From positions 49,634,390 through 49,698,389 of the forward strand of contig NC_068576.1 of NCBI RefSeq assembly GCF_025698545.1: 64,000 nucleotides of DNA. The letters are read 5' to 3'. The notes beneath the pieces are model-generated. The model did no database searches, was not told the origin of the DNA, and was given only the letters and a program-made list of their open reading frames with translations. Numbering within the stretch: position 1 is the stretch's first letter; every line of letters begins with the position of its first letter. The position numbers and the translations under genes were made by a program. Positions 21,656-61,565 of the stretch are shown one piece after another. This DNA comes from Gossypium raimondii. Taxonomy: Eukaryota; Streptophyta; Magnoliopsida; Malvales; Malvaceae.

Positions 21656-23629
21656 CTATGTACTCTTTCTTCTCATATGGTGAAGAACAAGAGGTGAGCC
21701 TTCAAACAAATCCAATAGATAGTTTTCTAAATCCTCTGGTGTATACTTAATGTATTTTCCAGCATGCCTTCCACTCTCTAGCTGACTCCCGAACCTCCCC
21801 ATGAAGGAGCGATAAGCTGGAATTACTTTCTCTGATATGGAAATTCGAAGCTCTTCACGAAGTTGAGGATCTGGGACCTTCCAACCTGTCTGAACCCTAT
21901 ATATGTCCTCAAAACATGCATTGAAGCTCTTAAATCTTTCCTTCAAGGCTACCTTGGAGGCATTGTTCGAGCTACCACCAATTCCTTCATCTTTCAAACA
22001 ATGTAAAGCTTTGGTCCAACAAGTCCTCAGATAACTTGTTGCATACTGGCGTATTGAGCCACGCCGCTTACGAACCCAGTTGTCTCCCAAAAGCTTTCTT
22101 AGCTCCGAATCCTTCACCTTTTGCACTATATATAGATTATTATTCATCAGAAAGATACAATGTAATGCACCATCCTCGTATAGTTTTGATTTCTCCTCAA
22201 GATTTGATTCCAAAGAGGATATCAACAACAGCAACCGTTTCGCAAAAGGAGTCATCATCTCTAGCTCACCGTCTTCACTCTTCAATCCGTCCGCTTCATC
22301 CTCGTCATTCTCCAATAAGGAATTCAAAGTCTCACTATAATCTACAAGCAGTTTCACATAGTTCATCACATAACGAGTAAGCGGATGAATCTCCCCGTTC
22401 TGCATAGGTTTTTTTGAAGCCTCATTCTTCACAGCATTCTCAAACTCCAAAAATGTCCCTTTCGCCGCATCCCCTAATCCAGCCAACACTCCCTTCGCCT
22501 CTGTACACATATATTCATCCATGAACATCATCTCGAACTCGAGCAATGCATCTGCTAACACATCATACATATCCAGGATCCTAAACAGCTTCTCAGATGA
22601 TCTTTTCCCAATAGCCACTGCTTCCCCGAAATTCAACAACTGCATTACACACCCTTTCGCGGTTTCATTAAAACAAATCTCTTTAATTGAATTCGATCCA
22701 TTGAAAATTTGATCACAAAGCCTCTTTTCCCCATTCAAAAGAACCCTAACAGTAATCTTAACAGCCTGAATCCATTTCTTCATCTTTTCATCCAAAGCTT
22801 TCCATTCAATCTTTTGAACTTCCTCAATACTTAACTTCTCAACTCCGAGAATCACCAAACACTCATCCAAAGCATCACGCCTAACATTACTATAAGCTTG
22901 AACGCACTCTTTTTCGTACCCGGCATTGATCATCCGGTCAGCAATCTCTTTCAATTCCATAACAGCATCAGGGTTTATCAAAACCACGCATAAATCATCG
23001 CCGAAACTCGGTCCTCGCTCGTGAAAGCACCCTCTTTCGCTATCAACCTCTGCGAAACTCTCGAATTCTTCACCAATTTCCCCGTCGTTCGCTGCGAATG
23101 AAAGGGAAACCCTCCGGATCGAACCGTAAAGCCTCTCCGAATCAAGCGGGACTGTGTTCCTAATCAAAACAAGGCGAAACTCGTCTTCCAGCCTCGACAT
23201 AGCCATCTGAATAGCCGTCTCCGCCCGGTCCATGATTTTGTTATCGGACCGGATGGACATATCAGCAACCAAATGAAGGATTTCGTCGACCGCAGAGAGG
23301 TACTCGGCGGCTTCATCGGGAGAGTCTTCCCAGGGGAGAGAGTGGCGAGAAGCATCAGCGTTGGAGGAGGAAGAGGAAGAGTCCCACTGGAGAATCACTT
23401 TCTCGGCAGCGTCGAAGCGGACGCCAGCGCTATCCGAGTTTTCGTTGATTAAATCAGTGATGTTAGACAAGCGGTTATCAAAGCTGGAGAAGATCAACAG
23501 CATGTCTTCACGAACCTCTTTCGGAGTGTTGAGACTCTTCAAGATCTGCTGAGCCGTCGCCATGACCCGGTCCTCGCTGCCCGCTCCAAGGTTGGTCGTA
23601 GTCGTCGTCATAGTCGATGCTTTTGACAC
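21656..23629 (-). CDS. EXO70: Exocyst subunit EXO70, probably EXO70F1-like
   Basis: A single-exon reading frame of 657 aa. EXO70 proteins are helical-rod subunits of the exocyst, which tethers secretory vesicles to the plasma membrane. The N terminus has [11 protein letters not shown] and [11 protein letters not shown], then [12 protein letters not shown] and [16 protein letters not shown]. The Exo70 domain proper follows (about residues 250-640), with [39 protein letters not shown] and, near the end, [19 protein letters not shown], then [17 protein letters not shown]. The lack of introns fits the plant EXO70B-H groups; EXO70A genes have many introns. The N terminus is closest, from memory, to EXO70F1. 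The next gene in the same orientation is the DYW PPR gene, as recalled for the Arabidopsis EXO70F1 region. The frame looks intact. Confidence 0.93.
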
Positions 23630-25824
23630 TCTGCTCAGACCAATTCTCCGGTTTCTTTCCTTGAGCCTTTTTCTAAGAAGTAATGATACGATTTGGGGAT
23701 TTGGGGAGGGGGGAGCGGTTTAGGGTTGAGGTGAAGTGGGAACAAGCATTTTCAGGGTTTGGGTTCTACGAGGAATTCGCCCCCCTGTGTTCTTTGTTGG
23801 GGTTGTTGTAAGAAGGGGAAGTGAAGAAGAAGATTATGCAGGGAAGTTGAAACTAGTCTATGCCGGCCGGTTAGGGAAAGGAAATACGATGCTGAAGAGA
23901 AAAGTAACGTAACGTCAGAGGATGTTTTATGGGCGCTTTGCCCGAGAATTTATTACAAATTAGATACTGTGTAAGAAGACAAAGCATAAGGGTTTGCGAA
24001 GTGGGGGAATTTTTATTACGGCACGATATTTCGGATATTTATTTGCTGTCTGTATATATATATTTATTATTTTTAATAATTTATATATTTATATTTAATT
24101 ATATCTTAACTAGATCGTTATTATAATAATTTGGAGGATGTGTGCTTTGAGCATGTTACATATGAAATATCATCTATTTTAGAGATTGAGATTTATGAGT
24201 AATTTAGGTAATATATTAAAAATTATTATAATATTTATATTAGAGTTAGTATTTATTCTAGGATAGTCACTTATTCTATTTTTAAAAAAATTATTTTTAT
24301 TATTTTACTACAATTTTAGAAAATATGTTATCCATGCAGTCCTGATTGTAGAGTTTTTTTTTTTAGTTATGTCTGTACAGTTTTTAAACTCCAATAACAA
24401 TGTATAAAACTATTTTATATTTTAATTATTTTTATTGTGTACTCATATATTAATATTACCTAATCTTTGTGTTTTTTATTTTATTTTAATTAAAATTAAG
24501 TTATTCACCTTCATCTGATATTTATATAGATGTCGCTTTTTTTATAATAATTAATATCCCAACCTTATTTCACTTGAATTTTATTAATTATTTTGAATAT
24601 AGAATATTTTGAAGAATGAAAGTATAAAAATTGGAAATAAGAGAAACCTAACGAGAATTGCATTGACCAAAAGTGTCTGCTTCACCAATTGACTCAACTA
24701 ATAATTAAAAAATAATAAATAAAATAGGAAGAAGATATGAAATTAATTAGAGGGGATCAAAATTTGTGATCCTAATTTTGGTTGGATTGGACTTTTGCCA
24801 ACTTGGGGCCCCTCCTTTGACTTTGTCTGCCTTGCGTACTGCAATTATATTATCAAACTAACTTCTCAATTCCCAATTATGCTACTTTCTTTTTTTTTCA
24901 ACCCCAATTATGTTACTGGATTGGATTCTAAATTATCCTTTATTCAGGTTTTAGGCGCAATTATTAATTTTATAATTCTATTTTAGGAAAATGGAAAATA
25001 ATTTATCGAAATTCGATGGATATTTTCATCATATCATATGATATTTATTTTGTGTCATGACAGTAGGAAACAACCTAAAATTGCTCAAACCTTTGCTTTT
25101 GAAAGCAGTTTTGCCTTTGAAAATGGTTCACCTTTGTCACATGGAGCCAATCTATGCTATGATGATACCAAAGAAAAACTAAACATCCTTTACTGTTTGT
25201 AATTCACAATAATCCCTCTTCCCCACAAGTTTCCAAGCTTGAAAGAAGTGACTTTGTTGGATCTCCTGCAACTCCTCCAAGGATATATACCATGCTGAGA
25301 ATAATTCAATGATTCAATCTTGGTGCAATTCAGAAATACAATAGAAACTTTCTATATCGGAGTGGAAATGCCTTTTGATTGAATCCTCTGATCCTCTTGT
25401 AAAAGCTATGTGAGCATCTGCAAAATTCAAAGTTCTTGCAGCATGGATGATGTTGAATCTTTCCTTTGAGAGCTGCTGCATCATTCACCATAGAAGGTAA
25501 ACATATCCATCAGAATGACAAAAAGAGAAAGATAGGCTGATAGGGTGACAAAAGGAATCCCCTAGCCATGATAAAACAAGTCCTTTCAGCCTCCAAATTT
25601 GGTTGCTCTTCTCTCTCATAGGATTACACAAAATGAGAAAGTGAACTGAAGAATGATTCCAAAGCTTGTGCACAAAAAGAATTTATTTTCGTTTAATGAA
25701 CTTGAAAATTACAACTCTTACATGTGGAATTACATTATTACTAAAAGATTAAGGAAAAATGGGTGGTGAAAAAACAATAGACTAACTAACATACATCTAT
25801 AGCCTGCAATTATAAGTTTTAACA
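23630..25824. other. EXO70 leader and AT-rich spacer
   Basis: 23630-23900 is the probable 5' leader and promoter of EXO70 (read on the minus strand) and is GC-richer than the rest. 24000-25000 is strongly AT-rich. 25250-25820 is probably the 3' UTR of the PPR gene. No further gene was recognised. Confidence 0.5.
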
Positions 25825-27933
25825 TCACCAATAATCACCACAGGAACAGCTCCCATCTTTGAAATGGTGAAATCTACTAGCATCCCTCACTACGATTTCT
25901 CTCCGAGTGACCAAAGCTATCAACTTGATAGCATTGTGGCAGTCATTGCAAATTCGATGGTTCTGCACGATTTGCAAAGGGGATCCTTTCATAGTATTTA
26001 TCAGGCCAAAAGCTACTGCTAATTTCTCACTGTGGTACAACAATATGCGCTGCTCCTGCTCGTCCACATCAGGCAGCAGAGTTTTCTCCTTTGGAACATA
26101 ACCATGCTTTGAGATTTCGTGTACCAAGCTATCAACTTTCTCATAAATCTCATTGGTCTGGACATGGGATTTGTCTCCAGAAAGGAAAACATGTGATTGT
26201 TTATTAACTTCAATCCAACTGCAGACAGGAAGCATTCGCAAGCCCTTTCTTCTCAAAGTCTGCAAAACACCGGCTGCTTCCTTTAACTTGCCTGATTGGT
26301 GGTAGATATTCAAAAGTACAACATAATTACTAAGCTTTTCAGGTTCCATCCCATACAATTTCTCGGCTGCATATTTCCCAAGCTCCAAATTTACATTAAC
26401 ACGACTGGCGGTTAACAGTGCAGCCCACATATTTGCCGTAGGCTTGAAGGGAGCACCTCTTATCAATGCAAAGGCTTCATCTAGAAGTCCCTCTTGACCT
26501 AATAATTCAATCATACAAGCATAATGCATTGCACGGGGTTTGATCTTGTGATCTCTACTCATCGACTGAAAAATTTCCCAACCACGTTCAAATAATCTTG
26601 AGTGGCTACAAGCAGATAACACAGCAAGAAAAGTAACATGGTTAGGTCTCATTTTTTCCCGAAGCATTTGCTCAAACAATTCCACGGCCTCAGCTCCCCA
26701 ACCGTGATTACCATATCCAGCAATTAAAGCATTCCAAGATATTGTATTCTTGCAAGGCATCCTGTCAAAAACATGTTTAGCATCTTCTACTCTCCCCCAT
26801 TTGCTATAGAAGTCCACGAGAGCGGTGTTAGCCACAATGTCCAACCCAAATCCATGGCGAATCAGACCTGCATGAACTTGCTTGGCATATTCAACTGAAG
26901 CTAACCTTGAACTAATTCTGATAATCATTGAAAATGTGAAATGGTCCATTTTAACACCAGAATCACGCATCTCATAGAACATACTTAGCGCTTCCTCACT
27001 GTAACCATGAAGAGCATAACCTGCTATAATTGAATTCCATCCTACAGTAGTCTTCTCTGGCATCTCATCAAAAGCCCATTGAGCATCTTCAATGCTGCCA
27101 CACTTACTATACATGTCAATCAGTGCACAAGACACGAAGATATCTTCACCTACACCGAACTTCACTGCAGCCGAATGTAGCTGCCTTCCTACTGAAATGA
27201 GTTCTAGCCCTGCAGATGCCCGGATCATTGTCGCTATAGTTCGAGATCCACAATCAGAGAACTCCTCCCACATAAGAAGAAACAACCTAAACGCCTCGAA
27301 GTAATCCCCAACATCGACCAGTCCAGCTATGATGGTATTCCATGAAACCAAATTCCTCTCCGGCATTTCATCAAATAAACTACGTGCATCGATCATCATC
27401 CCACATTTCACATGCATAAGCAGCACCCTGTTACTCATATACTGATCCGGCTCAAACCCATTACTTATCATGTAACTAAATACTCTCTTAACTGCTCGTA
27501 CAGATCCCAACCCAATACAAGCGCTCACTAATGCGTCATACGTGCTTAAACCCACATCAAAACCACCTTCAAGTTCCAAAATCTCAAACAATTCAAGCGC
27601 TTCCCTATACCTATTACAAAAAGCCAATTTCTCTATCTGACTACAAATCCCGACACTGGGTCTTTTAACATGGGTCTCTTCTGTTTCTTTCAAGTCAGAG
27701 TCAGTATTCCTAGAAGGTTTTGGCTTGGGCCGCCGTGGCTGCAGCCCTTGCTCAAGAGAAAAACACTTAATTTTATCACATGGGTTACCACATTTTCTCC
27801 TATTGAATCGAAAACAATAATCGGAAAACAAAGGCTTTGTTCTGAATACCTCATGGATTGATGAAGGAAAGCGAAAACTATTCTGTATTTTATCTAATGA
27901 AATGGATTGGTAACAAGCAAGTGAGATTTCCAT
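25825..27933 (-). CDS. PPR protein of the PLS-DYW class, organellar C-to-U RNA editing factor
   Basis: An uninterrupted 702-aa frame. The first 50 or so residues are rich in Ser, Arg and Phe with few acidic residues, as in a chloroplast or mitochondrial transit peptide. Roughly residues 110-520 are PLS-type pentatricopeptide repeats, with recurring segments such as DAQWAFDEMPEKTTVGWNSI and NALIAGYGNHGWGAEAVELF. E/E+ motifs follow. The C-terminal DYW deaminase domain has the zinc and catalytic residues: HSE at 634-636 and CNDCH at 662-666, and the chain ends GDYW. These proteins bind single organelle transcripts and deaminate a specific cytidine; the target cannot be read from sequence. From memory it resembles At5g50390 (EMB3141). 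No introns, as is usual for the family. Confidence 0.93.
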   Translation of the reverse strand: MEISLACYQSISLDKIQNSFRFPSSIHEVFRTKPLFSDYCFRFNRRKCGNPCDKIKCFSLEQGLQPRRPKPKPSRNTDSDLKETEETHVKRPSVGICSQIEKLAFCNRYREALELFEILELEGGFDVGLSTYDALVSACIGLGSVRAVKRVFSYMISNGFEPDQYMSNRVLLMHVKCGMMIDARSLFDEMPERNLVSWNTIIAGLVDVGDYFEAFRLFLLMWEEFSDCGSRTIATMIRASAGLELISVGRQLHSAAVKFGVGEDIFVSCALIDMYSKCGSIEDAQWAFDEMPEKTTVGWNSIIAGYALHGYSEEALSMFYEMRDSGVKMDHFTFSMIIRISSRLASVEYAKQVHAGLIRHGFGLDIVANTALVDFYSKWGRVEDAKHVFDRMPCKNTISWNALIAGYGNHGWGAEAVELFEQMLREKMRPNHVTFLAVLSACSHSRLFERGWEIFQSMSRDHKIKPRAMHYACMIELLGQEGLLDEAFALIRGAPFKPTANMWAALLTASRVNVNLELGKYAAEKLYGMEPEKLSNYVVLLNIYHQSGKLKEAAGVLQTLRRKGLRMLPVCSWIEVNKQSHVFLSGDKSHVQTNEIYEKVDSLVHEISKHGYVPKEKTLLPDVDEQEQRILLYHSEKLAVAFGLINTMKGSPLQIVQNHRICNDCHNAIKLIALVTRREIVVRDASRFHHFKDGSCSCGDYW

Positions 27934-28499
27934 GATTGAAAATTAAAGATGGATAAGGAGATGTACCTTCACAAAGATTAAAACTTTGGGGACGAAGCTT
28001 TCTCGAGACTAAGGGAAAGAGATTCGTTAGGTTGAGTTATTTCCATGTTTCTTATAAAGGAAGAAGAATTCAAAAAAGAATTGGGTTTAGAACTACTCTC
28101 AGCATCGAGAGATCCGCCGAGAGTTCACTGTTAAATTCAGTAGTTGCCGACCCGGATAATAGGAACGAGCATTTTGTCCATTTAGTTTTGAATTTTTAAG
28201 GCTTAAAATAATATTTCACACCTTTTTTTCTAATTAAAAAATATTGGAAATAATTTAAAATAATTTTTTATTTTGGTTGACGTGGATCTTCATGTCAATA
28301 GTGAAACAACTGATTCTATTATGGTTAACAACACGAAAATTGAATGTGGATATCATGCTTAATTTTTTATGATTTTATTGTTTCAATGTAGATTTCTAAC
28401 TTAGTTTTAATGTTTGGATAATGGTTGTAATCAAAGAGATAATTGAATTTTTTAAAGCGAAAGAAAAAGAAAAAATTATTGACAGTGACTGCTTTCAAT
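27934..28499. other. PPR gene leader and spacer
   Basis: About 27934-28150 is the probable leader and promoter of the PPR gene on the minus strand. The rest is AT-rich and shows no gene. Confidence 0.4.
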
Positions 28500-28898
28500 T
28501 AGACCTATCCATGGCCGGGCGGCCCGGCTCGACTCGATAGCCCGCTCGAAATATGGGCTTGGGCAAAAAAATGAGGCCCGTTTAAAAAAAGGGTCGAGCC
28601 TCGGGTACCACTTTTTTGGCCAGGGCCCGCCCCGGCCCGAATATAATAAATATATATATTTTTTTTTAATTTTAAAATACTTTTAAAATAAATTTTTTTT
28701 ATTTTTTAAATAATTTTTTAATGTTTATTTTAAAAATGGGCCGGGTCGGACAGGGCTGGGGCTTATGATATTTTTCCCGGACCGGGCCTGGGCAAAATTT
28801 CAAGCCCATATTTCGGGCCGGGCCGGGCCCGGGCCTAGGAGGCGGGCCGAAATTTTCCCTGCCCAAACTCGGCTCGGCCCGGCCCATGGACAGGTCTA
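28500..28898. mobile_element. Short non-autonomous hAT element (399 bp) with GC-rich ends
   Basis: The ends are inverted: TAGACCTATCCATGG on the left, and on the right the complement reads TAGACCTGTCCATGG. They are flanked by an exact 8-base direct repeat CTTTCAAT (28492-28499 and 28899-28906). An 8-base target duplication together with a TAGAC/TAGAG-type start is characteristic of the hAT superfamily. The subterminal regions are rich in GGCCCG/CGGGCC; the middle is A/T-rich and has no coding capacity. The same subterminal sequence flanks the 3.5-kb element at 46975-50441. Confidence 0.85.
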
Positions 28899-28906
28899 CT
28901 TTCAAT

Positions 28907-38998: not shown

Positions 38999-39644
38999 AG
39001 TGGGATCCGAGTTTCATCAAGTCAAATCATTAAGAACAAATTAAATTTTCTATTATTTTGAAATGATTCAATCTTAATTTTTATTATTTATGAATTTTAT
39101 GTTAAAATGTAATATTTATGTTAGAATCTTTGAGATTCATGTTGAATTGTTTGGATTTCGATAATTCTAGGGTTTCATATTTTAATTAAATGATATTTGG
39201 TCATTATGGTGGATTTTGTGTGGATATGTTTAATTTTTGCTTTGAAATTAGAAGGATGGCTCAAGATTTTGTCAATTTCACTTTTAATTTTATTAATATT
39301 AATTATATATTGAAAGTTTTCCTTTTCCGTACAATTACAGTAGTCTACATTAGGTCAATATCTAATGGAATGTTTTGGTTTATGTTTTTTGTTCAATGTT
39401 TGGGGTTATATCATGCATTAATTTTGTATTGTTTTTAATGTCATTATTTGGATTAATTAATATTTTTGTTTATAAACATTTATGGATTCAATTACCAATT
39501 TTATCAAATTGGTTTTATGAAATTAGCTATAATTGAAAAAATTGAAGTTGTTAATTTTCTCACACACATATATATAATTTTTGGGTGTTTTAATGCAAAA
39601 TATTCACTATAATACATGTTTAAAAAATATGGTTTTAAATATAG

Positions 39645-39835
39645 GGGCAATTTACCAGAAAAAGCCCTTTTTTAAAAAAAAATTTACCGAAATGGGCTGA
39701 TTTTTTGATTATTTACCGGAATGGTCCATTTTTTGGGAAATCTACATACGTCGGTAGCGATGTCGAGGTACATGGCGGAAGATCGCGTCCACGTCGGTAG
39801 CGACTCTTGGCGTGGACGCGACCTTTCCAGCGTGA
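39645..39835 (+). repeat. Left terminal inverted repeat of the MULE
   Basis: Pairs with about 50515-50710 on the opposite strand. It contains GCGTCCACG at 39785-39793 and the inverse CGTGGACGC at 39811-39819, so the end could also fold on itself. Confidence 0.8.
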
Positions 39836-40123
39836 ACGATACTAACGGTAAAAATTTGACCGTTGCCCCCCCAACGGTCAAAAAATATATATATAAATAC
39901 CCCCCACCCCTTTATTTTTTTTCACAAACAAATCCTATCTAATTTTTCCTCTCTAATCCTCTCAATTTCCTTCCAAAATTCTCTTAATTTCCTTCCAAAA
40001 TTCTCTCAAACCCATATTTAATTTTAATTTCCTTCCAAAATTCTCTCAAATCCATTTTTTAAAATAATTATAATTTTTTTATATTTTTTTAAAATAATTT
40101 TAAATTTTTTTATATTTTCATCA

Positions 40124-42316
40124 ATGGCCGGATCATTGACTCGTCTTGATAGCAATCACATATTGGTGGAGCAAATGAAAATGGTAAGTATTAAATTTAA
40201 TTTGTAATTATTATTTAAGATTTTTTTATTTATGTATTTTTAGATAATTATTAATTTATTGTTTGTTATAAAAGTCTGAAGATCGGGTATTGGAATGCCA
40301 TATCCGGAATATGCATGCTCCTCCATCACCGTTAGTAGAGAACTACCTGCGGGAAGCGGGTTTTTGGCAAGTGGCGACGGTAGGCCGGGGATTCAAGTTG
40401 GACCCGAAACTGATTAGTGCGTTGATCGAGAGGTGGAGACTCGAGACGCACACATTTCATCTTCCATGTGGATAGTGCACTATCACTCTAGAAGATGTCA
40501 ACATGCATTTGGGATTGCCGGTGGACGGGCACCCAGTCACCGGGTCTGCCCAATCTAGCAATTGGGAGGCGGTGTGCTACGAGCTTTTGGGCGCTATTCC
40601 GAAAAAAATGGATGGAGGTAAGGTCGAGATGGGCTGGTTACGTGCCACCTTCCCCGAGCCGAATGTAAATTCAACTGAAATCCAAAGAATTCGATATGCT
40701 CGATCATACATTCTTCAAATAATTAGAGGTTATCTGATGCCGGACACGTCACGGAGCCGTGTACATCTAAGATGGCTGCTAAAAGTCGTTGATTTTAGAG
40801 GAGCCGGTGAATTTAGTTGGGGGTCTGCCGTCTTGGCAACATTATATCGGGAGATATGCGGGGCGACGTGATCGAGGAGAGCAAACATCGGAGGTTGCCT
40901 GTCACTACTGCAATCATGGGCACGGTTTCGCTTTCCATTTCTACGTCATCGAGTGAACTACCCATATACATTCCCACTTGTAACGAGGTAAATTTTATAT
41001 TACATTTTTGAATTATTATGTAGATTTTGTAAGAATAAAAGTATGCTAAAAATTTATTTAATTAGGTGGAACCATCCGGCAAGTTTTCGTGGATTACCGT
41101 CTGAACTTGAAGATATACGGCTTCTATTGGACCAACGGTCGAAAGCAGAAGTAAGTATTATTGCAAATAGATATTTCCATACATTCGCTAGTCGATTGAT
41201 ATTTAGTATTTAGTATTTAGTATTATGTATATAACTAATATTTCTATCATGTTCATATAGTTTCAATGGACACCATACGAGGATCCGGCAATTCGGGCAG
41301 TAATCCCGGAAGAGTTTTTACAAAATCCGAACGCTTGGCACGTGAAAGTGGTGTTGATAAACTATGCAACCGTGGAGCCCCACCAGACAGACAGAGTGCT
41401 ACAACAGTTTGGATGTAGACAACCGATTCTTGCGGATCCTGAGGAGTTTGACGAGCACCACAAAATCGACATTCGGCTATTAGGTACGGATTGGCCTAGA
41501 TACTGGTCCGAGTACACGGAAATGTGGGAAAATCGGCATGAATATCTACCTACTCGAGAAGCAATCATCGTTCCGGAGTTAGTGTGTGTTCCAGAATACA
41601 TGTCATGGTTTAGGATCCATGGCAAACCGTATTTACTTACGCCAGAGGAGAGGCAACGGCAATTACGTCTCGGAAGGAAAAGGCGCAGACCTCTAAATCC
41701 AAGACGAGAAGACTTCGAAGGCAGCCCCTCAACGAGGCCCAAACAGTCACCCGGCACATCATCAGCGGGCATGCAATCACCGGCCCCAACGAGAGCACCG
41801 ACGCAGTCACCTGATGCAGCAATTCAACAGATGATACCCACGCAACCGCCTTTCCCTATGATGCCAGGTATGTTTCCTAGCCCTTATATGTACCCTAACC
41901 CTTACATGTATCCTTTTCCGAATACCATGGCAGGTTGGAGCCAAATGCCCGGTTCAGCTCCATTTCCTGTTATGCCGAGCGGACCATTGATATCTAGGCC
42001 AGCAGCGTAGGAGGGATCGGCTATACCTTCGGGGAGCTCTCCTTTTTACCAATCGCTAGCAACGTATGGCTTTCAAACACCGTCGTCGTTCATGATGCAA
42101 ACACCTCCACATACACTATTATTTGAAGGTGGATCATCGTCCCAAGTCCGACAACCAGATGCCGAACCGGAAGAACCAAAACCACCACCGGAGGAAGAAC
42201 CACAATCACCACCAGAGGAAGAACAACCGCCGCCGGAAGCTAGAGGAAGGAGGAATCCAACGCGCAACCGTCGACGGCCGCCATGTGAAACCGAATCCCC
42301 CGGTCATAAACATTGA
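40124..42316 (+). pseudogene. Plant mobile domain (PMD/MAIN-like) protein gene with three stop codons
   Basis: Exons 40124-40183, 40275-40987, 41066-41150 and 41261-42316 keep frame through GT-AG junctions and describe a protein of about 637 codons. The N-terminal two-thirds is a PMD: FWQVATVGRGFKLDPKLISA, then ITLEDVNMHLGLPVDG, MGWLRATFPEPN, ARSYILQIIRGYLMPDTSR, YEDPAIRAVIPEEF and IVPELVCVPEYMSWFRIHGK. The tail is rich in Pro, Gln, Glu and Arg, with PPPEEEP runs. Related plant proteins are often labelled serine/threonine phosphatase 7 long form, but no phosphatase motif is present. PMDs are known both in transposons and in host regulators such as MAIN/MAIL1. In-frame stops lie at 40473-40475 (TAG), 40869-40871 (TGA, probably from CGA) and 42008-42010 (TAG, probably from CAG). 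Confidence 0.85.
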
Positions 42317-42426
42317 TTGCCGTATTTAAATTTATTATTTGATGTAATAAAATAGAAGTTTATTTGATGTAATACGCATAGAAATTTTTTAAGAAAATTT
42401 TGATATTATTTGATATAATAAAATAA

Positions 42427-43312
42427 AAACCCTAATTTAATTGAAAACCCTAACCTAACCCTAACCTAAATTAATTAAAAACCCTAAACCTAACCTAAAT
42501 TAACAAAAACCCTAAACCTAACCTAAATTAATTAAAAATCCTAATCTAACCTAAATTAACTAAAACCCTAAACCTAACCTAAATTAACAAAAACACTAAA
42601 CCTAACCTAAATTAATTAAAAACCCTAATCTAACCTAAATTAACTAAAAACCTAAACCTAACTTAAATTAACAAAAAACCTAAACCTAACCTAAATTAAT
42701 TAAAAACCTAATCTAACCTAAATTAATTAAAAACCTAAACCTAACCTAAATTAACTAAAAACTCTAATCTAACCTAAATTAATTAAAAACCTTAATCTAA
42801 CCTAAATTAACTAAAACCCTAAACCTAACCTAAATTAATTAAAATCCTAAACCTAACCTAAATTAATTAAAACCTTAATCTAACCTAAATTAACTAAAAC
42901 CCTAAACCTAACCTAAATTAACAAAAACCCTAAACCTAACCTAAATTAATTAAAAACCTAATCTAACCTAAATTAACTAAAAACCTAAACCTAACCTAAA
43001 TTAACAAAAACCTAAACCTAACCTAAATTAATTAAAAACCTAATCTAACCTAAATTAACTAAAACCTAAACCTAACCTAAATTAACAAAAACCTAAACCT
43101 AAACCTAACCTAAATTAATTAAAAACCTAATCTAACCTAAATTAACTAAAACCTAAACCTAATATAAATTAACAAAAACCCCAAACCTAACCTAAATTAA
43201 TTAAAAACCTAATCTAACCTAAATTAACTAAAAACCTAAACCTAACCTAAATTAACAAAAACCCTAAACTTAACCTAAATTAATTAAAAACCCTAAACTA
43301 ACCTAAATTTTT
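42427..43312. repeat. Telomere-like minisatellite (AACCCTAAACCTAACC type) inside the MULE
   Basis: About 30 tandem units of roughly 26-30 bases alternate between AACCCTAAACCTAACCTAA and AACC(C)TAATCTAACCTAA, joined by ATTAATTAAA or ATTAAC(T)AAAA. Units resemble plant telomere repeat CCCTAAA and telo-boxes but are not pure telomeric DNA. The array lies exactly between the 3' ends of the two convergent MULE genes, close to their stops (42316 and 43599). Confidence 0.9.
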
Positions 43313-43598
43313 TGGCTTAATAATTTTACATATTTTTTGGCTTAATAATTTTACATATTTTGAACACTTTAATAACCATTAACACAATTTTTGGGCTTAA
43401 TAATTTGAGATTATTTGATAAATTTTACTAACCATTAAGAAAAAATTTTTGGCTTAATAATTTTACATAATGTTAGATCGGTAAAATGTTTTGGTGGTAT
43501 TAACAATTAAGAAATTAAACTAATTTGATAATTTTACTAACAATTTATACAATTATCAATTAATAATTGAAGAAAATGTATTTTTTCTAAAATTACAT

Positions 43599-46478
43599 TC
43601 AGCTATTGCGATTAGGGCATGATCGACTTGTATGGCCTGGGTTCCTACACCATCCGCACAACTTCTGCTGACTGGATGTTTCTCGGATATCCATATTGTT
43701 CCGTATTCTAGTGGAGCAAGGTCGACCCTTTGGTTTTCGACGCAATTCTCTATCCGGTAACAGCTTAAAAGGAGCAAGAGATACGGGCGGCCACTTACGT
43801 TCATCTGGGACCGGTGGGAAAACATGTCTCCAAATGTTGTACATGTTTTCTAGTTTGTACACTTCGTCCACATAACTCATTGGATCCAGACGAAGTTTCT
43901 GGCAAGCTGCAATAACATGAGCACATGGATAACGAAGTGCATCAAACTTCCCACAGTCATAAGTCCTATTTCACAAGTGTACACGATACTGCCCGCCAAC
44001 AACACCTTGGTGCGGTTTGTCAAACTCCGTCACGCGAAACCATAAATTGTCTCGATCGTGACACACAATGTGCATGATGTTTGCCCTCGCCTTCGCCTTG
44101 TTAATTTCTTAAACTACCTTACTGCACCATACATGGCCACCCTGCATCTGGCCAGCATAAGTTGCTGCTCGCTTTGGAAATAGCGCCGCCAAATAGAAAT
44201 ATGTCTCTCGCACAACCGATGTTATCGGTAGATGGCGCGTTCCTTTAAGAACAGAATTTATGCATTCAGCCAGGTTCGACGTCATTTGGCCATATCGTAG
44301 GCCTCCATCGTATACTTGTGTCCACTGTTCGAAACGTATGTTATAAAGGTAGTCCGCCCTTTCTCCATTTTGGGATCGTAAAATTGCCAACATCTCCTGA
44401 AAACGATCTTTATTTATTTTATACCCTGCCAATTGGAAGATAATAGCGAATATTTTATACCACTTCTACCAATAAAAATAATTCAAATTGACAAACGAAA
44501 TAATACAGTTATAAACTAAATACCCATGTTGGTCACTTGTCGTCGTTCGCTCTTGGATGGATATTGCCTGTAGTAGTTCGAAGCAACGTGTCTTAGGCAC
44601 TATCTATGGTGTGTGCGCTGCCACAAACTTCCCTCTTGATCAAATGCAGCTAGTATACCGGCGCCCCGATCTGAAATAACAAAGATATCAGGTTGGGGGC
44701 AGACATGCCTCCTTAATCTAGAGAGAAAGAAATCTCAGTCATCAGATGACTCCCCCGGTGTTATTGCAAATGCAATTGGAAGAATTCTCCCAGCGCCATC
44801 CTGTGCCACTGCAACCAATAGCCGATGAGTATACCTACCGAACATGAAGGTACCGTCAATTTGTACCAATGGCTTGCAGTATGAAAATGCGTCTCGGAAT
44901 TGTTTAAAGGTCCAAAATAGGCGTTTGAACACTTGACATCCACGTAGCAATCGGCCGTTGTAGTACGCATGTTCCGTTTCAAGGTCTGTGATGGCACCTG
45001 GGACGTATTTCTCTAGCACCTGACACAACTGCCACACTTCATTATATGAGGCGTCTCACCCACTATGCATCTTCTCCAATGCCTTTTGCTTAGCTATCCA
45101 AGCCTTGCGGTAAGAGGGCGTATACCCCATTTGGCTACGGATATTGGCAATTATCACCGGCACTGAAATCCTGGGATCTGCTTTTATCGTGGGCATTATC
45201 AAGCTGGCTAACATAGCTGAATCCATTTTGGGATGATCTTGTGAAACACCTACAGAGGGAGTACATTAGATAATGCAACATTGCAAAATAAAATTATTAT
45301 CCAGATACATTCAATCATGTACCTGCAGCACATGTATGTGGACCTTTGAACTTTTTTATCTCCCACAACCCCATCCTTTTTTTTAACGAGGCGACGATTT
45401 TCCATGAACATGTGCCGTCTTGCACCGCACACTTTGCCTCAAACTTATCGAATTTTGATTTAACGACGTGGTAATTAATGCCGTTTTTGATGCTATGCTG
45501 TTTCAAAGCACCAATAAAACTATCCTTGTTGGTAAACTGATTACCAACTTCAAGTTCATCGAAATCTACCCCCGAACTTGTACGATCGCGCAACCGGTGT
45601 GGTAGATCTGGAAACTCTAACGCATCATCTGCTGATAGATCGATATTATGCATGTGGGCTGGAGGTGAGTATGCTCTGAATCGTGGATTTTCTTCATCAT
45701 CTGAACTCCTTTCAGCATCTTTACCTTCTGTTGGAATAGGCTCCGGTTCAGAAAATAATCCCACTTCTGCACCATCCGGCCCGGGCTCTCGAGGTGGATC
45801 CACATCAGAGTCATCTTCTAACCCACAATCATCTGCAGCGTACGACGTCCCCTCACCGGTTGACGTCGTAGGTAGTACGCCATCCCTTCTTCTGGGCATT
45901 TGATAACGTCCCCAATTGGATGTAGATTGCCATCCACTAGAACTTGACGCAGTTCCCCAGTACGTATTTCCAGCATCAAACGTCGAGCCACCAACGTACA
46001 TGTCTCATCCACCAACAGAGTGTCTTGCGGGGGATGTGCATTCGACACCTCTACCGAACATGGGCTGTTCCGTATTTTGTAACTCGCTAACAGAATGTCG
46101 GCCAGGGGTCGTGTATACATCTCGAACACCGGACAGAAGTACATCAGTTGGTGACGTAAATTGTACATATAACTCAATATAAGTTGCTCCACTAGCAAGA
46201 TGAGTCTGCACCATTACCTCCAAGCTACGAGCACGTTTTATGTCGAACGAGTCATATGTCACCGGATCAACACAAGAACAAAATCGATACGTGATTGACA
46301 GAACTTTCATTGGCGTCGTTCTGAAGATTTTACGCCTAATTCTTTTACGAAGTTCTGTCAAATCTATGTTCTAGTTAAATGACAGTTGCACCGTATTCTC
46401 CGACAAAAAGACAACACCATTCTCGGTGTGGCAAACCTCACCATCGTAGTAAATAACATCACTAATACGTTCGCTCAT
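43599..46478 (-). pseudogene. MuDR-type transposase gene with seven stop codons
   Basis: Exons 45323-46478, 44524-45249 and 43599-44425 join in frame (903 codons). Order of parts: N-terminal region starting MSERISDVIYYDGEV; Ser/Pro/Glu-rich linker; MuDR DNA-binding region with NKDSFIGALKQHSIKNGINY and the zinc ligands of CSWKI and HTC; then the MULE catalytic domain with the first Asp in LVQIDGTFMFG (44855-44857), the second in VISDRGAGI, the C-x2-H motif CLRH, and Glu in NLAECINSVLK. A SWIM finger follows and a CCHC knuckle (CGWCRNPGHTSRSC) ends the protein. Stops lie at 46371, 46005, 45056, 44735, 44600, 44109 and 43971 (lowest base of each). Three stand where related proteins have Trp (TGG to TGA). 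The first SWIM cysteine is Tyr (TYDCGKF). The protein cannot be made whole. Confidence 0.88.
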
Positions 46479-46583
46479 TTTGAAACTCTAACTTTCTTAG
46501 CCTCTCTAAATTGTTTCTGCTATGACTTATGCATTCTAAGAACATTTTCTGCCTAATTTATAGCCTTAGCCCAAACTTGCTAC

Positions 46584-46922
46584 TGTAGCAAAACCGCGTC
46601 CACGAGGGCGCGATTTCACAATTTCTTCTCAAATAGCATCCTCGTAGAAATGATTTTATACTATTTGCTCAGAAACATCGAAAAAATTATTTCTTACATG
46701 ACCTCTTGTAGCAAAATCGCGTCCACGGTAGCGATTTCTAATTCTTCTCAAATAGCATAATCGTAGAAACGATTTTATACTATTTGCTCAGAAAAATCAG
46801 AAAAAAAATTATTTCTTACATGACCTACTGTAGCAAAGTCGTGTCCACGAGGGCGCGATTTCACAATTTCTTCTCAAATAGCATCCTGGTAGAAACGATT
46901 TTATACTATTTGACCAGAGACG
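46584..46922. repeat. Triple subterminal repeat beside the transposase start
   Basis: Three copies of about 122-124 bases begin near 46584, 46708 and 46829. Each starts TGTAGCAAA followed by a GCGTCCACG-type motif, then ATTTC, TTCTTCTCAAATAGCAT and CGATTTTATACTATTTG. They lie just upstream of the transposase ATG and face the right inverted end of the MULE. Confidence 0.85.
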
Positions 46923-46974
46923 TCAACTCGAAATAATTTATTCTGGGACCCCTAAACCCTAAAAAGCCTGCACC

Positions 46975-49900
46975 TAGAGGTGTTCATGGGCCGGGAGGCC
47001 CGACCCGGCCCGACGACCCGTCCGAAATATGGGAGGGTTTGGGTAAAAATATAGGCCCGAAATATGGGCTTGGGCAAAAAACGAGGCCCGTTTAAAAAAC
47101 GGGCCGGGCCTCGGGCAAAATTTTTTGGGCCCGGCCCGAATATAGTATATATATATATTTTAAAAATTTTAAAATTTGTTTAAACACATTTCTTTTCCCG
47201 TCTCCCCCACATTTCTTTTCCCGTCCCCCCCACTCCCAACTTGTCACTTTTCCCAAGCCATTTCCCCTATTTCCCTCTTCCTCAAATCCCTAGCCTTCCA
47301 TTTTTTTTTCTCAACCTTCACCTTCAATTCCGGCAGCAGTCCTCCACCACCGATCCACCTCCAGTCATTTTTCTTTCCAAAATCAAAGGTTAGTTTTCTT
47401 TATTTTTTCTTTCTCTGATATTTACTGTAAATATAAGTTTCATCTATTGAAGTTGCTGTAAATATAAGTTTGTTTTATTTTTTCTTTCTCTGATATATTT
47501 TTTCTTTCTCTGATATCCCAGTACAGTAGTGTATGTATAATGATTTTGTTTTACTTTTCCCCCCCGGTATCCATAACCTAACCTTAATATTTGTTAAGAC
47601 TTGGGGTTGAAAGAAGGGGAATGGGTGTAGAATAACCCTTCCAGTCTTAACATTAGACTTGTTATTTCACCTGTGCTTCGGTTGCCCTACAAATTTAGAT
47701 ATTTATGTATTTTCATGTTTTTCTCATATATTCTGGTGTATCGAAATTCGAAGGCATCAAGTAGAAATTGGAAGGATACAGGTTAGGTCTTCTAAAATTA
47801 CTAGTTTATTTCCAATTTGTTAAAATTGAATTTTCATTTAACTTGGATAATACATCTGAACTGAAGAGCCAAACTTGCTCTCGAAAATAAACTAAATTCT
47901 AATTTCTGTTAAGGGAAGGAAAAGAATGCCAGTATTTCTTTTTTAAATAATTAACCGCAATGGATTTGGAGTGAGACCATTCACTTCCACCCTTAAAATT
48001 TCTTAAACCACACAAATAATTTTCTAAAAAAAGAATTAGCAGTGATTGATTGAAGAATTTTACTAAACAAGAGTCATTATGGTTTGAAATAAATTTAGTA
48101 TTAGTCAACTAAATAAATAACATATGATAATGAAAATCAACTCATTGATTTTTCCATCTCTACTTTCTTTGAAGAATTGTTAATCTAATGCTCCAATCTC
48201 GCGACATGCTTCTTACTTATTATTGTTAATAATCTTTTAATTTAATGTTATTTATAATGTTTAATCTTAATTTAATTGATGCTATAATAATTAAGTCACA
48301 ACCATTTTAAAGTTTAGTGTAATTTAGTTAAAAATCAATTTTAAAAATTTAATTTAATATCGATATGATCAATGAAAAAGACTGTATGTAATTTGCAGTA
48401 TATTTTTTATGAGATCACATACAAGTATATTTTTCTGCTTCTTTCATGCATGCTGGTTCAACTTTATGGGTTCATTATTTCTTTGCTCTGCTACATGCAA
48501 ACAAAACACTACATTTTCCTGCTTTCATGCATGCTGCCAGAGGTTCTGTATTTATATTATTTGCATATAATTCATGTAATGTAATATTATGCATAGCCAT
48601 TATTTCTTACATTTGTTTCTATAATTTCTTTCTTACATTCTTTCTTACATTTGTATTTATCTTTTTTGTTTTTGTTTTGTTTTATTGCAGAAATAAGCTA
48701 TTGAGGCAGAAAAACAGCAGGCCGAGGCAGGTTGCTATCACTTAGAGGTTGCTATCACACCCTTTCCTTCGAAACAATCAACTTTAGTGACTTTTTGTAA
48801 ATGATGTGTGTTTTTTTAGTATTACTTAAAGACATGTGACAAGTTTGATCTTGAATCTAGCATAGTTAAATAACTAGTTTATTATATTGTGCAATATAAC
48901 TAGTTTATTATCTTGTATCTAGCATAGTTAAAATATAATATATTTATTTTTTCAAAACTGTTATAAAATTTATAACTTTTGAAAAAGTAAAATAATATAA
49001 ATCTTCACTTTTATATTTGAAAAGTAAAAATAATATAAATATATTACATTCACATATAGACACTTGTTTTGGTTTTGGAGGTTGAAATAATCTTACAAAC
49101 AAACACATGATTTTTTTTCTTCTACGTTTGCTATGTCTTACCCCTTTTTTGTAATTTTGGAAAAAATGAATAAATTTTAATTTTGGTATTTAACTACTAC
49201 ACCTTAATTTTTAATGTAATATAATGTTTTAATATACTCTTATAAAATTTGTAACTTTTTGAATTTTTGTTTTAAGTTGTATTTTTTCTACCAAAAGAAA
49301 TTCATACATTAAATGTTGATGTCATATACATATAGTGTTACTTGTCAAACATTAAAAATATTTAAATTGGTTGCAAAAAGGACGATGACGACGATGAGGA
49401 CGATGATGTTTCTTCTGTAGCTTTTTAAGATACTTTCTTTCTAAATGTTTAAAATTTCATTTAGCTTACAATTTATATTTTGTTATGAAATTAAATATGT
49501 TGATGGATTAATGTATGAATATTATGGTTTGTTGCTTAATTTTCCGAAGTCATTTTGGACTTTGAAGGTATGTGTACTTGTGGGGTTTAACTTATGTTCT
49601 TATCTCAAAGATGGTTTGAAGTAAAATTAGAGATTGAGATTTATATAATGACTAGAATTAGTGAATGATAAAGCTCAAATTGATTTAATATGATTTAATA
49701 TGCTTATGGATGTGCTATCTATATGTATATGTGATTTGAAGGGAAAGTTTTGAGTTCGCTATCTAATTCGCAAAGAGAAAAAAGTTTGTTGAGCAAATAT
49801 TTGTATGCTTTGCTTCTCCATTCAATTTCTGAACTTTTTTACAGCATAAAAGCAATAACAGAATATTTAATTAATTTAATTATGTTATTATGCATAGATA

Positions 49901-50441
49901 ATATGCTACTTATTGCCCAATGATAATATGTTGCTAGTCCTAATTACTTGTATAATCATTTTATTTTATTCTCTTTTTTAAGAATTGATTGTTACTTAAA
50001 TGTCACAAATGTGTAATTATATACAATTAAATAACATTTAAATTCAATTAGTTGGTAATTTTTAAACAACTCTAGTGGACATGAGGTTCATTATTTATAA
50101 TCAAAACTTAGAATATAATACTACATCAATTCTAACATAAAATTTATAGATAACATGAAAGCTATGCATTTTGTTCTTTAAATAAGTAATTTTATTTTAA
50201 TTTTTTTCATTATATACAAAAAAAATATAATTTGATATTTGATATAATTTTAATAACAATTAATTTTAATATTAGTTTTAAGCAAAAAAAAAGGGCCGGG
50301 CCGGGCCCGGGCTTCATATTCTTTCCACGGGTCGGGCTTGGGCAACATATTAAGCCCATATTTCGGGTCGGGCAGGGCCCGGGCCTAGTAAGCGGGCCGA
50401 AAATTTTTTTTGGACCCGGCCCGGCCCATGCACACCTCTAC
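46975..50441. mobile_element. Non-autonomous hAT element (3.5 kb) inserted in the MULE
   Basis: The ends are TAGAGGTGTTCATGGGCCGGG and, on the other side, CCCGGCCCATGCACACCTCTA, matching the hAT end consensus YARNG. Flanks are CCTGCACC and CCTACACC, an 8-base target duplication with one change. Subterminal GC-rich stretches (46981-47140 and 50290-50430) match the 399-bp element at 28500. The 3-kb interior has a CT-rich leader-like segment (47180-47390), an exon-like piece at 48690-48746 and an acidic run at 49380-49429 (KDDDDDEDDDVSSVAF then stop). No transposase catalytic region was found. Confidence 0.85.
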
Positions 50442-50514
50442 CTACACCATAAACCCTAAAAGCCAGAAAACCCAAATGTGAAATCAACGTCAAAATCGCG
50501 CCCACGTCAGCGCG

Positions 50515-50710
50515 ATGTCAAGACATGGCAAGAGGTCGCGTCCACGTCAGCAGGTCGTACTGACGTGGATGCGATCTTCTGCCATGTACCCTGACATCGC
50601 GCTGATGTGGGCGCGATTTCCTGAAAAATGGACCATTCTGGTAAATAATAAAAAAATCGGCTCATTTCGGTAAATTTTGAAAAAAAAGGGTTTTTTCTGG
50701 TAAATTACCC
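50515..50710 (-). repeat. Right terminal inverted repeat of the MULE
   Basis: Read on the minus strand it starts GGGTAATTTACCAGAAAAAA and follows the left end for about 180 bases. It holds GCGTCCACG at 50538-50546 and a near-inverse CGTGGATGC a few bases later. Confidence 0.8.
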
Positions 50711-51296
50711 TAAATATAGTTCTATGTTATTTGGTTTAGTATTTTATGGTTCCAAATATTTGGTTGCATAAATTTTTATTTTTATTATGTATAAAACAGT
50801 CAAAAATTCAGGTTTTTGGCTTTTTATTACGATATTAAGATAACCTTATTTTGGAAACATAACGTGATGAAAAATTTCAATTTGACCTTAAGAAAATTTT
50901 GATTTTGAATTTTTATATTTATATATTTTAACTTAATTGAAGAAACAATTGTCAAAGTAACTTCATTGTGGAAATTACTTTATTTTAAAATATAAAATGT
51001 TTTATGCATGTAACTTAAGCCATGGTAAGTTAATATTTACCAAAATTACATGTGCATTTGGTAATTAACATGTGACAATTATTCGGTTTTACATATGAGT
51101 AATAAATCAACCCAGAGGAAGATTTATAATTCAACATGTTCTTATTGTCAATGTTTGATTACTACACCAATATATCACTTATAAGTTAATATTTTTGTCC
51201 CAATGTGAAATATTAATGGAGTGCATGGTATCTTGAGATATGGTTTACCTTTATTCAAATTATTCTTGTTTAAATTTGAAGCTTGTTTTGTTTGAT

Positions 51297-60313: not shown

Positions 60314-61565
60314 TTAAATAGCAAAATGTTCAGCTTCCACAACTTCCTCCATTTCTCCAACACCGCCGTGGCCGCCGTCATCACCATTACCGCCTTCTTC
60401 CAACCACCTTTCAATCGGTCCACATTCCGCCTTATGTCTCAACTTCCAATCAAGCGCTTGGCAACCACGGGAGCAATAGTTCACGGTGCCGCAAACCGAG
60501 CATCTCCTAAACTCGTGAGCCCTTGTCTCGGGCCTCCCGCACCCTTTATGGGAACAAAGCCTTAGCCCCTGCCCCAACGCACCCCTCCCTGACTCGAACC
60601 ATTCTTTTGAAAACACGTTCACCGGGTGGACCTCCGGTGCCGGCACATTGCACCCGAAATCACTCAATAACGGACAACCCGAACCCGCCTTGAAACTATA
60701 ATGTTGATAATTTAAACGACGTTGGTGTTGTTGCTGGGGTTTTCGTTTGACTAAGGCGTTTAAAGACGACGCAAGTTCCCGCGCGTTGGCTCGGATGAGC
60801 AGCCGGCGTCCTTCGGCTATATGTTGGCGCACGCCGTAACCGTCTTGTAAGCAATGGCCAAGTTCACGCAGGGCGTCCACGTGGCCTAGGAAAGCGGCTC
60901 TCGCGCATAAGGCTACTCCGGCACGGAGATCCTTGTCGTTCTTCGAACCACCGCTTCCGTTGAATTGAATGACTCCGAGAGAGTACAGAGCTGGCGCGTG
61001 GGATTTGATTGCTGCTTTAGCCAGTAACGACGCTCCGCTTCCTCTGTTTTGTAAGCAGTAAAATTGGATCTGCAACGGCAACAAATTACGTTAATTAGAA
61101 ATGAATTTTATAAATAAATAAAAAACAGAAGAAATTCGTACGAAATACGGACCATGCCGAGAGTGTAGCAAGCTTCAACGTTGCCGGCGTTAATGCAGTG
61201 TTTGAGAAAATGGTGAGCGGAATCGCACCAGTTTCTAGCTTTGACGGCCAAAGCTTTAGAGCCAGCTTTTGATAAAACCAAAGGATGAAGAGCCAAACGG
61301 TTTAATCTCTTACATCTACCAAAAATAAAAAAAAATCGAAATTTCAATTATTATTACCTTCAAACGACAGTAAGAAAAATAAAAAATTCAAAGGAAAAAA
61401 AATCAAAACGTACGTTACGAGAATGTTGATGAAATCCGAAGGGGAAGAAGCGGAAGAAGCGAGCTTGGAAAGGATGGAAATAACAAGATCCTCAGGTAAT
61501 CCATCGAACAGATCAGATTTATCGGTGAATTTACGAGAAATCCTTTGCTTTTTTCTCTGCAACAT
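60314..61565 (-). CDS. F-box protein with Sel1/HCP-like repeats and MYND zinc finger
   Basis: Exons 61414-61565, 61153-61315 and 60314-61069 give 356 aa, close to the recalled Arabidopsis relatives At1g67340 and At5g50450. F-box proteins recruit targets to SCF ubiquitin ligases. The F-box is at about residues 19-65 (FDGLPEDLVISILSKLAS, then CKRLNRLALHP). Sel1-type helical repeats follow to about 210, with AKAAIKSHAPALYSLGVIQF and CARAAFLGHVDALRELGHCL. The MYND finger spans about 277-321 with ligands in CSHKGC, CSVCGTVNYCSRGCQ and HKAEC. The tail is Gly/Glu-rich (GGNGDDGGHGGVGEMEEVVE). Junctions are GT-AG and in frame. Substrates are unknown. The gene looks intact. Confidence 0.92.

What the first reader, a model, noticed from the sequence alone, without database searches (positions are those of the whole stretch)
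39636..50719. MULE that carries a plant-mobile-domain gene convergent with its own transposase
The element has a perfect 9-bp target duplication (TAAATATAG) and long inverted ends. Inside are two full-length but decayed genes facing each other: a four-exon PMD gene and a three-exon MuDR transposase. Host PMD proteins (MAIN/MAIL1) act in silencing and meristem maintenance, and PMD-transposon links are known in general. The two-gene layout with an intact boundary suggests the PMD protein was a functional second protein of the transposon, comparable to mudrB in maize MuDR, and not a chance capture.
Basis: partly seen in the sequence, partly recalled or inferred. Interest (0 to 1): 0.85.

Follow-up and report, generated by a model that had tools for sequence, protein, structure and literature searches.

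The report
Jumping gene with silencing-related partner gene
This is a dead copy of a plant jumping gene whose relatives mostly carry, facing the transposase, a second gene of a family that plants use in silencing; the layout was already known, but the second gene changes fast beside a fast-changing DNA repeat, as expected of a protein that fights silencing.

Summary
A Mutator-like element (39645-50710) lies in a perfect 9-bp duplication, with ~180-bp inverted ends, a four-exon PMD gene and a convergent three-exon MuDR-type transposase. Both genes are full length, without frameshifts, with 3 and 7 internal stops.

The proposed test could be run in the window's own genome (750.8 Mb). Of the 40 best transposase matches (window included), chosen without regard to PMD, 34 have a PMD beside them, all convergent. 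Of 24 copies examined at both ends, 23 have a 9-bp duplication (8 of 9 or better). PMD is a standing second gene, not a chance capture.

The layout is in print: PMD antisense to the transposase in plant MULE groups (PMC6446971, Table 1). Added here: PMD weakly matches DUF1985, a domain of the MULE anti-silencing protein VANC, and a largely family-specific tandem array differs between the subfamilies, as VANC targets do. I favour a VANC-like anti-silencing role; inferred, not shown.

The parts
39636..39644 (.). left target-site duplication TAAATATAG
39645..39824 (+). left terminal inverted repeat
   Evidence: 82% over 182 columns with the right end; also found at the ends of other copies
40124..40183 (+). 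PMD gene, exon 1
   Evidence: splice sites of intron 1 GT/AG in 29 of 29 rows
40275..40987 (+). PMD gene, exon 2 (core of the PMD domain; two internal stops)
41066..41150 (+). PMD gene, exon 3
41261..42316 (+). PMD gene, exon 4 (end of the domain, then a low-complexity tail; one internal stop)
42452..43309 (+). tandem array between the convergent genes (28-bp and 83-bp units; unit motif CCTAAATTAA plus AAACCCTAA telobox)
43599..44425 (-). transposase gene, exon 3 (SWIM zinc finger)
44524..45249 (-). transposase gene, exon 2 (MULE domain part)
45323..46478 (-). transposase gene, exon 1 (DBD_Tnp_Mut)
46580..46912 (-). 119-bp tandem repeats upstream of the transposase start
46967..46974 (.). left duplication of the nested hAT-like insertion (CCTGCACC)
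46975..50440 (.). nested hAT-like element, not part of the MULE
50441..50448 (.). right duplication of the nested insertion (CCTACACC, 7 of 8)
50533..50710 (-). right terminal inverted repeat
50711..50719 (.). right target-site duplication TAAATATAG

Best explanation
SHOWN: this is a decayed copy of a high-copy two-gene MULE family. PMD is a regular second gene, convergent with the transposase, with a tandem array between the two gene ends. INFERRED: the PMD protein works like VANC of Arabidopsis VANDAL elements. It would bind or act at the family's own non-coding tandem arrays and lift host silencing there, so that the transposase gene is expressed. The protein and its array would then change together quickly, while the transposase stays constrained. 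The structural part is near certain (about 0.95). The anti-silencing part is my best guess, and the figure below is for it.
For: Linkage: of the 40 best transposase places (window copy included), 34 have a listed PMD within 12 kb, all convergent; of the union of 170 places 92 are linked, 91 of 92 pairs convergent, against a mean of 2.0 links by chance. Structure: 28 of 28 fetched copies hold PMD (by choice of query) and 27 of 28 hold transposase sequence in the same layout; 23 of 24 examined at both ends have a 9-bp duplication at 8/9 or better within 3 bases of the ends, against 15 of 1200 random pairs searched alike. Splice sites are largely kept. Open frame: mean stops in PMD exon 2 do not rise with divergence (1.19 at 78-80% identity, 1.14 at 87-92%, 149 places, rho -0.06). 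Fast protein, slow transposase: 31:14 against 9:25 (Fisher p=2.6e-4), 30:14 against 11:25 with tree-placed rows only (p=1.5e-3). VANC link: 4 of 7 PMDs scanned match DUF1985 at E 6e-4 to 1.6e-3 (the four are related, so not independent); genome-wide, 50 of the 144 DUF1985 matches listed fall on listed PMD places, 0.25 expected by chance; VANC holds DUF1985 (PMC5735166, passages). Arrays: 18 of 18 spacers examined are tandem arrays; CCTAAATTAA occurs 194 times in 11 spacers and once in the 7 of the second subfamily, which have 106 CCTAATTTAA against 11. The CCTAAATTAA unit has 276 exact matches in the genome, 0 for the reversed control; 22 of the 25 listed sites lie at the family's genes, all 22 strand-concordant.
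Against: DUF1985 matches are below that family's curated cut-off, the three PMD-B-like proteins do not show them, the window's own copy is not among the 144 genome-wide matches, and 94 of those 144 are not assigned to a listed PMD. No binding, expression or methylation data. PMD replacement changes at the neutral ratio are also what a useless passenger would show. The second unit motif (CCTAATTTAA) is less exclusive: 13 of 18 listed sites lie at the family, and some sites hold both motifs. The AAACCCTAA telobox, present in all 18 spacers, could be the working part instead, through host telobox binders (recalled). Both structure models were too poor to use (mean pLDDT 40 and 51).
Confidence: 0.42

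Rival explanations
1. PMD is an old passenger: a captured host gene that rides along between the ends with little or no function, its frame still open only because the bursts are recent.
For: Replacement/silent ratio of PMD on internal branches about neutral (0.87; domain alone 0.78, not different from terminal branches), while the transposase is constrained in the same copies; 31:14 near-fixed differences (30:14). Some copies have lost most or all of the transposase but keep PMD (L017, L009; L018 keeps part of PMD), so PMD can be carried without it.
Against: Stops do not rise with divergence among 149 PMD places down to 78% identity; none of the 45 near-fixed PMD differences is a stop (p about 0.08, weak); PMD is open and about 49% identical in a copy of a second high-copy PMD family; PMD sits in most members of several plant MULE groups (PMC6446971, Table 1 rows).
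Confidence: 0.22
2. The transposon PMD is a decoy of the host silencing factors MAIN/MAIL1: it binds their partners and weakens that pathway without recognising the element's own DNA.
For: The window PMD is closer to a MAIN-like host gene (38%) than to PMD-B-like genes (about 27%) (the labels MAIN-like and PMD-B-like are recalled). MAIN and MAIL1 act with PP7L in silencing (PMC7156037, passages). Ikeda et al. suggested an anti-silencing use of captured PMD (PMC5418596, passages).
Against: A decoy would be expected to keep the partner-binding surface, yet PMD replacement changes run at about the neutral ratio. It does not explain the largely family-specific arrays.
Confidence: 0.18
3. PMD is a helper of transposition itself, needed for insertion, as is supposed for mudrB in maize MuDR.
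For: Two genes per element in a fixed convergent layout; a second MULE gene apparently required for integration is known in maize (PMC6446971, passage).
Against: A protein that touches the transpososome would be expected to be as constrained as the transposase; it is not. No resemblance to mudrB was tested.
Confidence: 0.12

Closest known systems
Plant MULE groups with PMD antisense to the transposase (MUDR, MUDRAVI2, MDR; Dupeyron et al. 2019, PMC6446971, Table 1)
   Same: 9-10 bp duplication where indicated, TIRs of tens to hundreds of bp, SWIM transposase, PMD antisense in most (MUDR), often (MUDRAVI2) or sometimes (MDR)
   Different: No new layout here. The table rows seen give no copy counts, selection analysis, tandem array or DUF1985 link for these groups; placement of this family in that tree was not tested
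VANDAL/Hiun elements with VANC (Hosaka et al. 2017, PMC5735166, passages)
   Same: MULE with a fast-changing accessory protein beside a more conserved transposase; non-coding tandem arrays of a family-specific short motif that change in concert; weak DUF1985 match
   Different: VANC is anti-silencing by experiment, this PMD is not tested; DUF1985 match below cut-off; VANDAL21 also has VANB
MULE transposase-PMD-C fusions of grasses and Amborella (Ikeda et al. 2017, PMC5418596, passages)
   Same: PMD carried by a MULE; PMD-C-like by resemblance
   Different: There one fused protein, here two separate convergent genes
Maize MuDR (mudrA/mudrB)
   Same: Two genes in one MULE; convergent layout (recalled)
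   Different: mudrB is not known as a PMD protein (recalled); homology not tested
Kaonashi/KIU MULEs with ULP1-like genes (PMC13317346, passages)
   Same: MULEs that keep a host-type protein domain as an accessory gene
   Different: ULP1 protease domain, not PMD

Membership tests
Mutator-like element (MULE/MuDR) | about 9-bp target duplication | tested here: met
   window copy perfect; 23 of 24 other copies with both ends at 8/9 or better
Mutator-like element (MULE/MuDR) | terminal inverted repeats shared by copies | tested here: met
Mutator-like element (MULE/MuDR) | MuDR-type transposase domains | tested here: met
   DBD_Tnp_Mut 35.5 bits (cut-off 25) and SWIM 23.6 (19.6) met; the PF10551 fragment at 22.6 is below its cut-off of 27.6
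Mutator-like element (MULE/MuDR) | catalytic DDE residues | not tested
   no alignment to a reference transposase was made
Plant mobile domain (PF10536) | Pfam PMD above curated cut-off | tested here: met
   165.9 bits for exon 2 read through its stops, cut-off 34.9; single pieces 85.5 and 39.8
PMD-C clade (MAIN/MAIL) | groups with MAIN/MAIL rather than PMD-A or PMD-B | tested here: inconclusive
   closer to a MAIN-like gene than to PMD-B-like genes of the same genome; no PMD-A reference was available and labels are recalled
MULE-PMD fusion (Ikeda 2017) | PMD and transposase in one protein | tested here: not met
   two genes on opposite strands
Dupeyron MUDR/MUDRAVI2 groups | PMD antisense to transposase | tested here: met
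Dupeyron MUDR/MUDRAVI2 groups | transposase falls in that clade | not tested
   no reference sequences in hand
VANC anti-silencing protein | DUF1985 domain | tested here: inconclusive
   E 6e-4 to 1.6e-3 in 4 of 7 PMDs, below cut-off; 50 of 144 genome-wide matches on listed PMD places, the window copy not among them
VANC anti-silencing protein | family-specific non-coding tandem motif arrays | tested here: met
   arrays in 18 of 18 spacers; first unit 22 of 25 listed sites at the family; second unit 13 of 18
VANC anti-silencing protein | sequence-specific loss of DNA methylation | not testable with these tools
   needs expression in plants
maize mudrB | sequence homology to mudrB | not tested
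   no mudrB sequence fetched

The most novel reading that the evidence does not exclude
PMD and the DUF1985 part of VANC are one protein family of MULE accessory proteins. The PMD of this element is a sequence-specific anti-silencing factor whose target is the telobox-rich array between the two genes, and the host silencing factors MAIN/MAIL1 belong to the same family. Anti-silencing proteins of transposons and silencing factors of the host would then be branches of one lineage, and each MULE subfamily would carry its own lock-and-key pair of PMD and array.
Probability: 0.27. Interest if true: 0.82.

Novelty: new member of a known kind. Interest (0 to 1): 0.52.

Why it matters
The molecular role of PMD proteins is called unknown in the papers seen (PMC7156037, PMC8616336, passages), although MAIN and MAIL1 are needed for silencing. 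A high-copy family with the gene, a candidate DNA target and natural variants of both makes that question testable. If PMD and VANC share a domain, the transposon weapon and the host guard come from one family. If not, the case still shows a transposon keeping a fast-changing second gene open across its subfamilies while the transposase is conserved.

Tried and rejected
Two AlphaFold2 jobs on PMD (host PMD-B-like L037; window exon 2) gave mean pLDDT 40 and 51. They were judged unusable, so no fold search was run. Profile search of the PMD alignment against solved structures: 8 matches up to E 10, none below 0.5, taken as none. Chance capture in this copy alone was rejected. Intron divergence as a neutral yardstick was set aside, because the introns have few sites (279 and 171) and look AT-rich to the eye.

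Rows dropped before counts: of the 29 rows (28 copies and the window) 24 were used for the branch test, those with at least 60% of both genes. For the subfamily comparison 7 rows that lie between the groups on the tree (L013, L016, L020, L023, L024, L025, L033) were left out, while 5 incomplete rows not on the tree (L009, L010, L017, L018, L027) were counted with the first group. Without those five the result is 30:14 against 11:25, 9 and 8 rows. For duplications 4 of 28 copies were not examined, because an end was missing (L017, L027) or lay outside the stretch (L029, L031). Spacers: 18 rows of 29 had both gene ends; the group of 11 includes four of the between-group rows (L013, L020, L024, L033). 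Motif places: the outputs list only the first places, which I grouped by hand into 25 and 18 sites.
Full report
1. What is there. The element runs from 39645 to 50710 between two perfect copies of TAAATATAG (39636-39644, 50711-50719). Its ends are inverted repeats that align over 182 columns at 82%. The plus strand holds a PMD gene of four exons (40124-40183, 40275-40987, 41066-41150, 41261-42316), 1914 nt, with three internal stops and no frameshift. The minus strand holds a transposase gene of three exons (46478-45323, 45249-44524, 44425-43599), 2709 nt, with seven internal stops and no frameshift. Pfam confirms PMD, DBD_Tnp_Mut and SWIM; the MULE domain fragment is below its cut-off. A hAT-like element of 3466 bp (46975-50440), flanked by an 8-bp duplication matching at 7 of 8, sits between the transposase start and the right end. 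It accounts for the length of 11.07 kb, where other copies with nearly complete genes have 6.6-7.7 kb and one 8.7 kb. Between the convergent gene ends lies a tandem array (42452-43309), and upstream of the transposase a 119-bp repeat (46580-46912).

2. Other copies. The window's own genome is held as an unnamed assembly of 750.8 Mb in 281 contigs; the matches lie on contigs C1 to C13, bar one weak match on C101. Size and number fit a diploid cotton, but that is recalled and no call names it. A query of the left end plus the start of PMD gave 45 matches from 40 scored candidates of 2593, that is, 39 places besides the window; 18 of the 39 begin exactly at the element's first base and 29 within 5 bases of it, counting three whose end is a separate piece. 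Twenty full stretches and eight more divergent ones were fetched. All 28 hold PMD, as the query demands. 27 of 28 hold transposase sequence in the same relative layout; L017 has none, and L009 and L018 have short pieces. Of the 24 copies examined at both ends, 19 have a perfect 9-bp duplication, 4 have 8 of 9, and one has none, ends being allowed to shift by 3 bases. Random position pairs treated alike reach 8 of 9 in 15 of 1200.

3. The reverse test. Because those copies were picked by PMD, I searched with the transposase alone. Its last 901 bp gave the 40 best places (93-100% identity; window copy included), and a 203-aa middle piece gave 150. PMD places came from four searches, each cut at its best matches. 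34 of the 40 and 76 of the 150 have a listed PMD within 12 kb. In the union 92 of 170 are linked, 91 pairs convergent and one not. Shifted positions give 2.0 links on average, 8 at most. Since the PMD lists are incomplete, the unlinked places are not shown to lack PMD.

4. Selection. Terminal branches behave about as neutral for both genes (ratio to neutral 0.90 for PMD and 0.99 for the transposase; 0.87 and 0.86 without C>T and G>A changes), which is the built-in control. On internal branches the transposase drops to 0.57 (0.39 without those changes; terminal against internal p=4e-4 and 8e-4). PMD stays at 0.87 (0.89; p=0.87 and 1.0), its domain part at 0.78 (p=0.56) (24 rows). Between two subfamilies (14 and 8 rows for PMD, 13 and 8 for the transposase) the near-fixed differences are 31 replacement, 14 silent, 0 stop in PMD, and 9, 25, 0 in the transposase (p=2.6e-4). 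With only rows placed on the tree (9 and 8) they are 30, 14, 0 and 11, 25, 0 (p=1.5e-3). Yet PMD is not simply decaying. Stops in exon 2 do not rise with divergence among 149 places (1.19 at 78-80% identity, 1.14 at 87-92%). The lack of near-fixed stops is suggestive only (p about 0.08). A second PMD (L041), of which 40 places at 92% or more are listed (itself included), is about 49% identical to the window's; L041 and L042 have dN/dS 0.13. Silent sites between the window PMD and L041 are saturated, and separate capture from a constrained host gene would give the same picture. A neutral ratio with a kept frame fits a fast-changing protein, or a mixture of constrained and diversifying sites; it does not prove either.

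5. A possible tie to VANC. The window PMD, a MAIN-like host gene (L040), L041 and L042 each match Pfam DUF1985 within profile positions 74-140, E 6e-4 to 1.6e-3, all below the curated cut-off; the four are related and not independent. Three PMD-B-like genes do not match. A genome-wide search with DUF1985 finds nothing over its cut-off. Of the 144 weak matches listed, 50 lie on listed PMD places (those) where 0.25 are expected; the other 94 are unassigned, and the window's own copy is not among the 144. VANC, the anti-silencing protein of VANDAL MULEs, carries DUF1985, is much less conserved than its transposase, and binds motif arrays that change in concert (PMC5735166, passages). No paper listed shows both DUF1985 and 'plant mobile domain' (30 of 36 papers listed; rows with more terms come first, and none has both). 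That library is partial, and Pfam clans were not checked.

6. The arrays. All 18 rows with both gene ends have a tandem array in the spacer. The motif CCTAAATTAA occurs 194 times in 11 spacers and once in the other 7, which belong to the second subfamily; these have 106 CCTAATTTAA against 11. The 21-bp unit of the first type has 276 exact matches in the genome, 0 for the reversed control; 22 of the 25 listed sites lie within 6 kb of a listed PMD or transposase of the family, all 22 strand-concordant. The second type has 1518 matches (1 for the reversed control) and is less exclusive: 13 of 18 listed sites, all 13 strand-concordant. The telobox AAACCCTAA is in all 18 spacers, 9 to 61 times each, 405 in all against 1.65 in shuffles of single bases. 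So a core is kept while the rest of the unit changes. Host telobox binders are a rival reading of the array (recalled).

7. Known or new. The layout is known. Table 1 of PMC6446971 (rows seen as a passage, first part of the section) lists PMD 'in antisense for most of them' for the MUDR group and 'often antisense' for MUDRAVI2. Ikeda et al. (PMC5418596, passages) report MULE-PMD-C fusions in grasses and Amborella, infer capture from host genes, and already suggest anti-silencing; the review PMC8616336 (passages) repeats the idea. What I add is the genome-wide linkage, the contrast in selection between the two genes, the largely family-specific array, and the weak DUF1985 tie. I therefore file it as a new member of a known kind, with an open and testable mechanism.

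Noticed in passing
window 46975-50440: Nested hAT-like element with TIRs TAGAGGTGT(T/G)CATGGGCCGG and an 8-bp duplication (7 of 8); no transposase was looked for in it beyond the ORF list. It splits the MULE between transposase start and right end.
   Followed up: partly
window 28544-28899: Stretches 75-78% alike to the two ends of the nested hAT-like element, probably a short relative.
   Followed up: no
window 21659-23719 (-), 25828-27942 (-), 9269-10780 (+), 60317-61090 (-): Host genes by Pfam: Exo70, a PPR-DYW protein, a SWIB-domain protein and a MYND-finger protein; the MULE lies in gene-bearing DNA.
   Followed up: no
L041 (G000 C13:34884871-34885455) and 39 further listed places: A second high-copy PMD family (copies 92-95% identical; several without stops), about 49% identical to the window PMD; with one exception its 40 listed places are not within 15 kb of the listed transposase places of this MULE family, so it probably rides in another element.
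   Followed up: partly
spacers of 18 rows, e.g. window 42452-43309: Telobox AAACCCTAA in every inter-gene array examined, 9 to 61 copies each, on a strand with 2-6% G.
   Followed up: partly
G000 C1:46289759-46293737 and C1:9052839-9053870: Long arrays of the second spacer unit more than 6 kb from any listed PMD or transposase of the family; origin unclear.
   Followed up: no
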